Under the pieces are notes generated by a model, which saw only the letters and a list, made by a program, of their open reading frames with translations, did not search any database and was not told the origin of the DNA. A stretch of DNA of 64,000 nt from assembly GCF_007997035.1 (NCBI RefSeq), contig NZ_VOSS01000005.1:62001-126000 (forward strand), in the 5' to 3' direction. A program made the translations under genes and the position numbers. Position 1 is the first letter of the stretch; each line of letters opens with the position of its first letter. This document shows, one piece after another, positions 493 to 3,315 of the stretch. Source of the DNA: Ralstonia sp. TCR112. GTDB taxonomy: Bacteria; Pseudomonadota; Gammaproteobacteria; Burkholderiales; Burkholderiaceae.

Positions 493-3198
493 TCAGGCGG
501 ATGGGTTCGCCAGTGCCTTGAGCCGGTACAGCGCATCGAGCGCTTCGCGCGGCGTCATGTCGTCGGGGTCGATTCCGGCGAGTGCTTCCGTCAGCGCGCT
601 GTCGGGTGCTTCGGCGTCGGCATCGTCTTCGTCGTCGGTGGGCGAGTCTGCGGCGAGAGCGAACAGGTCAAGCTGGGGCGTGGCGCCGGTGTCTGCGGAA
701 TGCTGCTCCAGCCAGGCCAGCCGCTTGCGCGCGGCACGAATGACCGGCTGCGGCACGCCCGCCAGCTGCGCGACCTGCAGGCCGTAACTCTGGCTGGCCG
801 GACCTTCTTGCACGGCATGCAGGAACACGATGCCATCACCGTGTTCGACGGCGGAGAGATGCACGTTGGCGGCCTGTGCAAACTCCTGTGGCAGTTGCGT
901 CAACTCGAAATAGTGCGTGGCGAAGAGCGTGTGGCTGCGGTTGTGCGACAGCAAGTGGCGCGCAATCGCCCAGGCCAGCGCAAGGCCGTCGAACGTGCTC
1001 GTGCCGCGGCCGATTTCGTCCATCAACACCAGGCTGTTGGGTGTGGCCCGGTGCAGGATGGCAGCGGCCTCCGTCATTTCGACCATGAAGGTCGAACGAC
1101 CGCCCGCCAGATCATCGGCGGCGCCGATGCGGGTGAAGATGCGGTCGATCGGCCCGATGACAGCCGCTTCCGCCGGGACAAATGCGCCGACGTAGGCAAG
1201 CAGCACGACGAGCGCGGTTTGGCGCATGAAGGTCGATTTACCACCCATGTTCGGGCCGGTGATCAGCAGCAGCTTGCGCGCTTCCTGCAGCATGCAGTCG
1301 TTGGCGACGAACTGTTCGACTTGCTGTTCGACCACGGGATGGCGTGCGCGCGTCAGCTCAATGCCCGGGGCATCGGTCAGCGTGGGGCGCGACCACGACA
1401 GCGCATGCGCGCGCTCGGCGAGCGTTGCCAGCACATCGGCCTGCGCCAGCGCGGCGGCGATGCGCTTGAACTCGGCCAGATGCGGCAGCAGTTTCTGCAG
1501 CAACTCTTCGTAGAGGACTTTCTCGCGCGACAGGGCACGGTCCTGCGCGGACAACGCTTTGTCTTCGAACGCCTTCAGCTCGGGCGTGATGTAGCGCTCG
1601 GCGTTCTTCAGCGTCTGGCGGCGGCGGTAATCGTCCGGCACCTTGGCGGCCTGGCCGTTGGTGACTTCAATGTAGAAGCCGTGCACGCGGTTGTATTCGA
1701 CGCGCAGATTGGCGATGCCGGTGCGCTCGCGCTCCCGGGTTTCCAGATCGACGAGGAACTGGCCGCAGTTTTCGGAGATGTCGCGTAGCTCGTCGAGGTC
1801 GGCATCGTAGCCGCGAGCGATGACGCCGCCGTCGCGCACCATGGCTGCCGGCTCGGCCATCACGGCACGCTGCAGCAGGGCGTGAGCGTCTTCCGGCAAG
1901 CTGAGCGCGGCGTACAGCTCGGTCAGCAGCGGAGCCGCGTCACTCCGCGGCAGTCCTTCGCGAATCTCGGGCAGGCGCGCCAGCGTGTCACGCAACGACG
2001 ACAGATCGCGCGGCCGCGCCGACAGCAGCGCCAGCCGCCCGGTAATGCGCTCCACATCCGACAGCGTGCGCAGCGTCGCACGCAACGTTTGCCAATCGCT
2101 GCCGAGCAGCACTTCAATCGCTTGCTGACGCGCTTGAGGCACGGCGCGATCCCGCAGCGGATGATGCAGCCAGTGGCGCAGCAGGCGGCTGCCCATGCTG
2201 GTCGCGCAGGTGTCGAGAAGCGAGAACAGCGTCGGCGATTCCTGCCCGCGCAGTGTCTCGGTCAGCTCCAGGTTGCGGCGCGTGGCGGTGTCCAGGCCGA
2301 TGAATTCGCTTTCGTGCTCGACGGTCAGGCCGATCACGTGACGCAGCGATTGCCCTTGCGTGGCTGCCGCGTAGTTCAACAGTGCGCCGGCGGCCGCCAG
2401 TGCGGCCGTCAACGTTTCGGCGCCAAACGCGACGAGGCTCGCTACGCCGAGTTGTTCACGCAGGCGGCGCGTGCCGGCTTCCACGTCGAAATGCCAATCG
2501 GGCAGGCGCGTGCGGGCGACATCAAGCTGGATTGTGTTGAGCGTCGCATCGTCGGCCAGCACTTCGGCGGGGCGGATGCGTTCGAGTTCGCGGTCGAGCT
2601 GGTCGGGGCTGCATTCCATCACGCGCAATTCGCCGCCGACGAGGTTGAGCCACGCCAGGCCCATCAGCGGCGCCGTGCCGCGCTTGCCGGGCAGGTGCGC
2701 GATGGCCAGCAGATGGTTGTTGACCTTGTCGGAGAGCAGTGCTGCGTCCGTCAACGTGCCCGGCGTGACGACGCGCACGACCTTGCGCTCGACCGGTCCC
2801 TTGGTCGTCGCCGGGTCTCCGATCTGCTCGCAGATGGCGACGGATTCGCCCAGCTTGACCAGCTTGGCGAGGTATTGCTCCGCAGCGTGGAACGGGATGC
2901 CCGCCATGCGGATCGGATGCCCGTTGGAACTGCCGCGTGCGGTGAGCGTGATATCGAGCAGGCGGGAGGCTTTTTCGGCGTCTTCAAAGAAGAGCTCGTA
3001 GAAGTCGCCCATGCGATAGAAGACAAGCGTGTTTGGATGCCCAGCCTTCAAGCGAAGGTACTGTTGCATCATCGGGGTGTGCTTGCTTAAGTCCTGCTCC
3101 GCAAAGTCTTGAGTTTTCTGGCTCACAGCCTGAGAACCCTTGCTGTACATGGGTTCTTGGGCGGTGCCCGAGTTTTCTTGGATAACGTCTACACTCAT
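493..3198 (-). CDS. mutS: DNA mismatch repair protein MutS, with a phage-derived N-terminus
   Basis: This 901-aa protein has the full MutS architecture. The mismatch-reading motif GDFYELF lies near residues 64-70 (F66, E68), and the Walker A motif GPNMGGKS is at about 648-655. Downstream are VLMDEIGRGTSTFDG (Walker B/signature) and the ATHY switch. MutS recognises mispairs and recruits MutL. The family hallmark HTPMMQQYLRLK begins at residue 40, whereas E. coli MutS has only about eight residues before it. Residues 1-38 (MSVDVIQENS... to ...AEQDLS) lie on the prophage side of the attachment core and are richer in A/T than the rest. I infer that the prophage supplies the promoter, ribosome site and first codons. 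The upstream sequence GAGCGAAG before the ATG is a weak ribosome site. The body of the gene appears intact. Confidence 0.95.
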   Translation of the reverse strand: MSVDVIQENSGTAQEPMYSKGSQAVSQKTQDFAEQDLSKHTPMMQQYLRLKAGHPNTLVFYRMGDFYELFFEDAEKASRLLDITLTARGSSNGHPIRMAGIPFHAAEQYLAKLVKLGESVAICEQIGDPATTKGPVERKVVRVVTPGTLTDAALLSDKVNNHLLAIAHLPGKRGTAPLMGLAWLNLVGGELRVMECSPDQLDRELERIRPAEVLADDATLNTIQLDVARTRLPDWHFDVEAGTRRLREQLGVASLVAFGAETLTAALAAAGALLNYAAATQGQSLRHVIGLTVEHESEFIGLDTATRRNLELTETLRGQESPTLFSLLDTCATSMGSRLLRHWLHHPLRDRAVPQARQQAIEVLLGSDWQTLRATLRTLSDVERITGRLALLSARPRDLSSLRDTLARLPEIREGLPRSDAAPLLTELYAALSLPEDAHALLQRAVMAEPAAMVRDGGVIARGYDADLDELRDISENCGQFLVDLETRERERTGIANLRVEYNRVHGFYIEVTNGQAAKVPDDYRRRQTLKNAERYITPELKAFEDKALSAQDRALSREKVLYEELLQKLLPHLAEFKRIAAALAQADVLATLAERAHALSWSRPTLTDAPGIELTRARHPVVEQQVEQFVANDCMLQEARKLLLITGPNMGGKSTFMRQTALVVLLAYVGAFVPAEAAVIGPIDRIFTRIGAADDLAGGRSTFMVEMTEAAAILHRATPNSLVLMDEIGRGTSTFDGLALAWAIARHLLSHNRSHTLFATHYFELTQLPQEFAQAANVHLSAVEHGDGIVFLHAVQEGPASQSYGLQVAQLAGVPQPVIRAARKRLAWLEQHSADTGATPQLDLFALAADSPTDDEDDADAEAPDSALTEALAGIDPDDMTPREALDALYRLKALANPSA
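3065..3085. other. Left attachment core (attL) inside mutS
   Basis: This 21-bp segment matches 53,701-53,721 at 19 of 21 positions. On the minus strand it encodes the K-H-T-P-M-M-Q part of MutS. The two mismatches are synonymous third-codon positions (ACC/ACT and CCG/CCA). This fits a tyrosine integrase using a conserved coding sequence as attB, with the phage carrying a codon-compatible mimic. A further GTAC four bases inward on the mutS side is also shared. The exact crossover point cannot be fixed from one lysogen. Confidence 0.75.
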
Positions 3199-3225
3199 CT
3201 TCGCTCGCCTACACTTGGCGTTTCA

Positions 3226-3314
3226 GCGTAGCTTTTTCACGTATCATGCCTCGATTCCTACGCCGACCCTTCGGGGTGGTGTAGCGGCAAAACCTACGCT
3301 AAAAAAAGCTACGC
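3226..3314. promoter_or_regulatory. Candidate integrase arm-type sites in the mutS/int intergenic region
   Basis: The motif GCGTAGCTTTTT occurs at 3226-3237 on the plus strand and, inverted, as AAAAAGCTACGC at 3303-3314. Further CTACGC copies start near 3258 and 3294. A related AGCGTAGCT sits at 53,641-53,649 next to the right core, followed by GGCGTAACTT at 53,653. Repeats of this kind flanking the core are typical of integrase arm-binding sites. The same stretch must also hold the promoters of int and of the hybrid mutS, which diverge here. This is inference from repetition and position. Confidence 0.5.
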
Positions 3315-3315
3315 C

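What the first reader, a model, noticed from the sequence alone, without database searches (positions are those of the whole stretch)
3065..3315. Prophage replaces the 5' end of mutS, giving a hybrid MutS and a possible mutator switch
KHTPMMQ codons occur at both prophage ends, differing only at two synonymous positions. The functional mutS at the left begins with 38 codons that lie on the phage side, while a host-like start (MAEHSAPVLEIDPKYGPFD) is stranded at 53,777. Mismatch repair in the lysogen therefore seems to depend on a phage promoter and start, and excision would restore the host version. Phage-like islands in mutL of Streptococcus pyogenes are a known precedent for a repair switch; here the target would be mutS and the gene is re-started rather than simply cut.
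Basis: partly seen in the sequence, partly recalled or inferred. Interest (0 to 1): 0.88.

Follow-up and report, generated by a model that had tools for sequence, protein, structure and literature searches.

The report
Prophage that re-starts host mutS
A prophage of about 50.6 kb sits inside the start of the DNA-repair gene mutS and replaces the lost start with one of its own, so the repair gene stays readable; this is a further example of a kind of element already published in 2017, and nothing here shows that it switches the mutation rate.

Summary
The only mutS match of this genome begins with 38 prophage codons; the host start is stranded 50.6 kb away. In 14 of 14 genus relatives with a readable 5' end, mutS begins with that stranded start and has no insert. 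The locally closest empty relative places the crossover in 8 bp, ATGATGCA (window 3065-3072, 53701-53708), the Met-Met-Gln codons of the HTPMMQQ motif.

"Hybrid MutS with an element-supplied start" holds. "Mutator switch" has no support: the integrated and host frames are in register, and mutS is under the same purifying selection as in empty relatives. The kind is published: Chu et al. 2017 (PMC5296598) describe elements in this motif that bring their own start, in Vibrio, E. coli, Pseudomonas and a Burkholderia prophage; of the four seen to excise, only Vibrio's left a frameshift.

Added here: the start lies in frame in 28 of 28 related mutS insertions; other frames give 5 and 7 of 27; one leader group, not the window's, shows protein-level selection; distant integrases (about 30%) also sit at mutS.

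The parts
493..3198 (-). hybrid mutS: codons 1-38 and KHTP from the prophage, host sequence from Met-Met-Gln on
   Evidence: 901 aa, Pfam MutS I-V; the 14 relatives with a full 5' end match only from residue 37; sole mutS match in the genome
3085..3198 (-). phage-borne leader, 38 codons (MSVDVIQ...EQDLS)
   Evidence: absent from 14 of 14 readable genus relatives; similar leaders next to related integrases in L003-L005, L102, L103
3064..3085 (-). attL core; crossover inferred within ATGATGCA at 3065-3072
   Evidence: attL and attR share an 8-bp block here; empty relative L036 agrees with either flank up to this block
3199..3315 (.). stretch between leader and integrase with GCGTAGSTTTT arm-like sites (3226, 3289, 3304); presumed mutS promoter region
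   Evidence: 6 matches with at most 1 mismatch in the window against 1.19 expected, 0 of 100 shuffles reach 6, three of the six here (pattern chosen after reading the sequence); the plainer GGCGTAGC is only weakly enriched, 7 against 2.95, 3 of 100 shuffles; no sigma-70-type match
3316..4605 (+). tyrosine integrase, 429 aa
   Evidence: Pfam Arm-DNA-bind_3 and Phage_integrase; related integrases at mutS
3065..53708 (.). prophage, 50,636 bp from crossover block to crossover block; terminase, portal, head protease, major head protein, tail sheath, tape measure, tail fibre, endolysin, anti-repressor
   Evidence: PHROGs matches; 30 ORFs scanned, 21 with a match
53700..53721 (-). attR core; crossover block at 53701-53708
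53709..53777 (-). stranded host mutS start, MAEHSAPVLEIDPKYGPFD-KHTP
   Evidence: same start in 14 of 14 readable relatives; identical in all 69 bases to L036; reads on into prophage DNA

Best explanation
[quoted passage not shown] The strand exchange lies in the 8 bp ATGATGCA, i.e. in two methionine codons and part of the glutamine codon, a stretch that stays nearly the same in DNA across species because Met has one codon. Integration cuts off the host promoter and the first codons of mutS, but the phage attachment site is built as a re-start cassette: a start codon and a leader in frame with the motif, right beside the integrase. The lysogen therefore keeps mismatch repair with a hybrid MutS; excision would rejoin the host start in frame. 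The main effect is to make insertion into a useful gene bearable; any change in MutS level is possible and untested. Shown by sequence: hybrid gene, stranded start, shared 8-bp block, frame conservation in relatives, no relaxed selection on the mutS core. Inferred: the exact crossover, that the lysogen's MutS works, that the phage stretch carries the promoter, and that the phage can excise.
For: Sole mutS match in the genome; empty sites in 14 of 14 readable relatives; 8-bp block shared by attL and attR, with L036 equal to the host side of attR in 69 of 69 bases and of attL in 119 of 120, the best of 14 relatives. All 28 loci in which mutS lies beside a related integrase have an open leader with a start codon; with a stricter pattern 27 of 27 in frame 0 against 5 and 7 of 27 in the other two frames (L056 missed by the pattern). 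The junction reads ATGATG in 28 of 28, ATGATGCA in 26. In 11 of 12 related elements followed up to 60 kb beyond the integrase a second HTPMM with an in-frame start lies 32-54 kb away; for the 12th (G016) only 11 kb was on hand. Leader group L008-L012: pN/pS 0.21 in frame, 2.07 and 1.33 off frame, 0.78-0.94 in the 66 nt upstream. mutS core pN/pS equal to relatives. In phage contigs L104, L130, L131 and L135 a leader of this kind runs into HTPMM and then not into mutS, as expected of attP. Published excision without scar in E. coli 536, P. putida F1 and B. multivorans CF2 (PMC5296598).
Against: No promoter was recognised. The window's own leader group gives no sign of protein-level selection (pN/pS 0.81; 0.85 and 1.09 off frame; near saturation, two of six rows one codon out of register). 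Excision and MutS activity were not tested. By synonymous distance over the whole mutS core the nearest relative is L032, not L036, and with L032's letters (CCG) the exchange could lie just upstream of the 8-bp block. L104, L130, L131 and L135 could be tandem or other insertions rather than free phage. Of the 30 family loci, 17 are not beside mutS: 10 lie beside ribA-like genes, the rest elsewhere or unresolved. One leader-bearing element (L006, genome G189) lies 150 kb from mutS, whose motif there reads HTPYMQQ, and no further motif was found in 40 kb on either side of it. L114 and L134, in the mutS part of the integrase tree, show no leader or mutS in the upstream sequence held. In the IMEVchUSA3/dusA case the element's start gave lower expression (PMC8409611), so 'bearable' may still mean less MutS.
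Confidence: 0.83

Rival explanations
1. Regulatory switch: integrated and excised states give different MutS levels, so that phage excision (stress, stationary phase) changes the mutation rate.
For: The host promoter is cut off and replaced. Precedents: V. splendidus 12B01 becomes a hypermutator on excision (PMC5296598); IMEVchUSA3 lowers dusA expression (PMC8409611); SpyCI in S. pyogenes mutL (starts of abstracts).
Against: Both frames are open and in register at the shared block, unlike Vibrio's 2-bp loss; no relaxed selection on mutS; no expression data.
Confidence: 0.12
2. Fixed, decayed insertion: the prophage can no longer excise and the hybrid start is simply the gene's start now.
For: attL and attR cores differ at 3 of 22 positions.
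Against: The differences lie outside the 8-bp block and are the ones expected if phage and host cores differed before integration (relative L036). The integrase has 429 aa with both domains, and the main structural gene families are present.
Confidence: 0.15
3. Assembly artefact or chance repeat.
For: The genome is a draft of 292 contigs.
Against: An IMG/VR contig (L101) matches window 3316-14602 at 100%, though it may be the same strain and starts at the integrase; the same architecture recurs in other genomes; no such core pair in 100 shuffles.
Confidence: 0.01

Closest known systems
Mobile elements in the HTPMMQQ motif of mutS (Chu et al. 2017, mBio, PMC5296598; parts 1-4 of 6 read)
   Same: Same target motif, integrase beside mutS, element-supplied start, orphaned host start at the far end; B. 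multivorans CF2 is also a putative prophage and excises in frame.
   Different: Here no experiment; the crossover is narrowed to 8 bp by comparison; the in-frame register predicts no 2-bp scar as in V. splendidus.
IMEVchUSA3 and related islands in dusA; ICE SXT in prfC (PMC8409611, passages seen)
   Different: Other target genes; mobilizable islands or an ICE, not phages.
SpyCI islands in S. pyogenes mutL (PMC4689407, PMC3430984, PMC4129442; titles and starts of abstracts seen)
   Same: Phage-like element in the 5' end of a mismatch-repair gene.
   Different: There integration blocks mutL transcription and gives a mutator; here the gene is given a new start. The title of PMC3430984 does name rescue by a SpyCI-encoded promoter.
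Prophage 01 of Pseudomonas fluorescens Pf-5 and kin (PMC2647930, passages seen)
   Same: Phage-type clusters near mutS.
   Different: They lie between mutS and cinA, not inside mutS, by those passages.
Burkholderia phage KS9 integrase group
   Same: 57% identical integrase.
   Different: Its nearest relatives in the tree lie beside a GTP cyclohydrolase II (ribA-like) gene, not mutS.

Membership tests
mutS HTPMMQQ mobile elements (Chu et al. 2017) | integrase within 300 bp of mutS | tested here: met
   integrase ATG at 3316, mutS start at 3198
mutS HTPMMQQ mobile elements (Chu et al. 2017) | insertion inside the HTPMMQQ motif | tested here: met
   shared block in the motif
mutS HTPMMQQ mobile elements (Chu et al. 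2017) | element supplies start codon and leader in frame | tested here: met
   38-codon leader
mutS HTPMMQQ mobile elements (Chu et al. 2017) | orphaned host start at the far end, homologous to relatives | tested here: met
   14 of 14 readable relatives
mutS HTPMMQQ mobile elements (Chu et al. 2017) | element-supplied promoter | tested here: inconclusive
   no sigma-70-type match in 3150-3400
mutS HTPMMQQ mobile elements (Chu et al. 2017) | integrase homologous to that of V. splendidus 12B01 | not tested
   that sequence was not fetched; of 9 distant integrases (28-34% identical) from other families of the class, 8 lie beside HTPMMQ or HTPVMQ read in frame, 7 of them with a mutS match, and the 9th lacks upstream sequence
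mutS HTPMMQQ mobile elements (Chu et al. 2017) | excision as a circle | not testable with these tools
   needs reads or PCR
Mutator switch (V. splendidus type) | excision leaves a frameshift in mutS | tested here: not met
   attL and attR are in the same register across the shared block, so exchange within it keeps the frame; a prediction, no excision was observed
SpyCI-type mutL block | integration abolishes the repair gene | tested here: not met
   mutS is open from a new start and its core is under purifying selection; expression not tested
Tailed prophage | integrase, terminase, portal, capsid, tail and lysis genes | tested here: met
   completeness and viability not tested

The most novel reading that the evidence does not exclude
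The phage attachment site is a dedicated, selected 're-start cassette': different phages carry seemingly unrelated leaders whose only common features are start, frame and the Met-Met block, and some leaders are kept as protein, so the phage may set the level or behaviour of MutS in its lysogens, for instance to hold the mutation rate of its own DNA and of its host.
Probability: 0.15. Interest if true: 0.6.

Novelty: new member of a known kind. Interest (0 to 1): 0.33.

Why it matters
It shows how a phage can use a protein-coding gene that the host needs as its landing site without losing the gene, and suggests why this site: two Met codons fix six bases in any host. The survey adds a test that is not in the four of six parts of the 2017 paper that I read: start and frame are kept in every mutS insertion examined while the leader sequence diverges, which speaks for keeping mismatch repair on rather than for switching it off. 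Whether MutS dose differs in lysogens is a clean, testable question.

Tried and rejected
Mutator switch by frameshift: rejected for this element because both ends are in register. Loss of MutS function: not supported by ORF, domains and selection. Promoter search: nothing found. Protein-level selection on the window's own leader group: no signal. Phage and plasmid collections: no near relative of the structural region in phages, one 96-base match in plasmids. Host name: not obtained; a search of the plasmid collection with a relative's flank gave one weak match of no use. Tandem insertion in G300: a leader-like start lies at the far end, but PPK2 and inositol-monophosphatase genes lie next to it, so I read it as a possible relic, not a second prophage. 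In one search the motif scan also gave three hits that I set aside: G265 at 2,297, G141 at 36,394 and G394 at 43,953; the last lacks ATGATG, while a second G394 hit has it. L114, L134 and L006 stay unresolved.

Full report
What is there. The window holds a bacterial mutS gene (493-3198, minus strand), a tyrosine integrase pointing away from it (3316-4605), about 50 kb of prophage, and at 53777 a second, short mutS start that runs into prophage DNA. MutS is 901 aa with Pfam domains I-V; domain I starts at residue 41, so the known domains lie after the leader; in all 33 listed matches to solved MutS-type structures the best stretch also begins at residue 35 or later. It is the only mutS match in the draft genome. 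Thirty prophage ORFs were scanned with PHROGs, 21 had a match; they include terminase, portal, head protease, major head protein, tail sheath, tape measure, tail fibre, endolysin and an anti-repressor.

Attachment sites. The two cores are 3064-3085 and 53700-53721, 22 nt with 3 differences; 100 shuffles gave no match at up to 3 mismatches. In relative L036, which has no insert, the sequence agrees with attR up to ...CACACTCCAATGATGCA and with attL from ATGATGCAACAG on: 69 of 69 bases on the attR side and 119 of 120 on the attL side, the best of 14 relatives. The exchange therefore most likely lies in ATGATGCA, the 8-bp block shared by both ends. This rests on the window's host having had the L036 letters. 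Codons at these places vary among the 14 relatives, and by synonymous distance over the mutS core L032, with CCG, is nearer than L036; with its letters the exchange could lie just upstream. Both flanks are contiguous in L036 (window 1-3085 at 91%, 53701-55226 at 94%). The element is 50,636 bp from block to block.

Relatives without the phage. Of 15 genus relatives, 14 have a readable 5' end and all 14 read MAEHSAP(V/A)LEIDPKYGPFD-KHTPMMQQ; one is cut by a contig end. None of the 15 has the integrase at E up to 1e-30.

Relatives of the phage. Of 398 genomes of the family, 42 including our own have the integrase; 30 loci were fetched. In 13 of the 30 mutS lies beside it in a hybrid frame; 17 do not, 10 of them with a ribA-type motif nearby (one such gene, in L013, was checked and is GTP cyclohydrolase II by Pfam). 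Among 16 loci from named genomes 11 have mutS (two are the same records as before), and among 35 viral contigs 6 do, 19 of the 35 having no sequence upstream of the integrase. In all, 28 loci with a hybrid, not all independent: 28 of 28 have an open leader with a start codon. In the 13 family loci the frame was followed only to the end of the fetched stretch. As a control, the other two frames have an open start in 5 and 7 of 27 (L056 missed by the pattern). The junctions share ATGATG in 28 of 28 and ATGATGCA in 26 of 28. Of 12 elements followed up to 60 kb beyond the integrase, 11 have a second HTPMM with an in-frame start 32-54 kb away; G016 had only 11 kb on hand, and for G300 that start is itself leader-like. 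In these 11 and the window the block shared by the two ends contains ATGATGC. By eye the leaders fall into several groups without clear similarity. Contigs L104, L130, L131 and L135 show a leader, HTPMM and a stop 6 to 29 codons on instead of mutS; in L104, L130 and L131, whose DNA I looked at, arm-like sites follow: the layout expected of attP, if they are not tandem insertions.

Wider spread. In 369 genomes drawn from the class, 10 including our own have the integrase at E up to 1e-25. Of the 9 others (28-34% identical by the two measures; one with a stop inside), 8 have HTPMMQ or HTPVMQ read in frame right beside it, seven running on into a mutS match and one (L145) into the contig end; the ninth (L148) lacks upstream sequence. 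I did not check a start codon in each of these. In the tree of closer integrases the 28 mutS loci fall in one part, together with leader-only loci and loci without data, and the ribA-linked loci with KS9 in its neighbour (FastTree, rooted at midpoint, no test of the clade). Since distant integrases also sit at mutS, ribA use looks like the later change; that is inference.

Selection. Leaders L008-L012 have pN/pS 0.21 in frame, 2.07 and 1.33 off frame and 0.94, 0.78 and 0.87 in the three frames of the 66 nt upstream; 130 codons of the mutS core of the same loci have 0.07. Pairs are not independent. The window's own leader group gives 0.81 and says nothing either way (rows L102 and L103 were one codon out of register). 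The window's mutS core has mean pN/pS 0.049 against 14 relatives, and 91 pairs of relatives have 0.050: no sign of a lost function, though a recent loss would not show.

Literature. Chu et al. 2017 (PMC5296598; parts 1-4 of 6 read) describe elements in the HTPMMQQ motif of mutS that bring a start and upstream region, an orphaned host start, excision with a 2-bp scar in V. splendidus and without scar in E. coli 536, P. putida F1 and B. multivorans CF2, and hundreds of hosts in Beta- and Gammaproteobacteria. The main text does not name Ralstonia; the supplements were not open to me. A search for HTPMMQQ in the held library finds this paper only. Searches for prophages in mutS (3, 4 and 3 papers listed) gave no other such report by title and start of abstract; I opened passages of one, on P. 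fluorescens Pf-5, whose prophages lie between mutS and cinA. Comparable re-starts are reported for dusA and prfC (PMC8409611, passages).

Verdict. A real, well-formed case of a published kind: a new member. The re-start is shown by sequence; that it keeps repair working is likely; a mutation-rate switch is possible only through expression and has no evidence here.

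Noticed in passing
39875-43241: Two adjacent genes on the minus strand match the IetS (2.1e-47) and IetA (3.1e-95) models of PADLOC: a likely IetAS defence system carried by the prophage.
   Followed up: partly
44882-46726: A 614-aa protein resembling OLD, GajA and HEC-01A families, possibly a second defence gene.
   Followed up: no
6647-11640: A 1251-aa protein that matches a PHROG of unknown function along its whole length (phrog_18693), beside a 370-aa protein of which residues 44-163 match the candidate defence model PDC-S33.
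   Followed up: no
4817-5542: Part of this ORF resembles Lar-like restriction alleviation proteins.
   Followed up: no
3156-3172: A terminator-like hairpin on the plus strand inside the leader, 7 pairs followed by TTTTCTTGGA; 0.3 such sites expected in the stretch.
   Followed up: no
L006; G189:C1: A leader-bearing element lies about 150 kb from mutS, and the mutS motif of that genome reads HTPYMQQ (CCCTACATG), which breaks the Met-Met block; perhaps a site that can no longer be entered.
   Followed up: partly
L068:16857: The far end of the G300 element carries a start that looks like another phage leader, next to PPK2 and inositol-monophosphatase genes: perhaps the relic of an earlier insertion.
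   Followed up: partly
L005: Here the ATG of the leader reads ACG; an in-frame GTG two codons upstream is present.
   Followed up: no
L056 and L131: A mutS with ATGATGGCG and a leader contig with ATGATGGCG carry integrases that lie close in the tree: the exchange block seems to follow its target.
   Followed up: no
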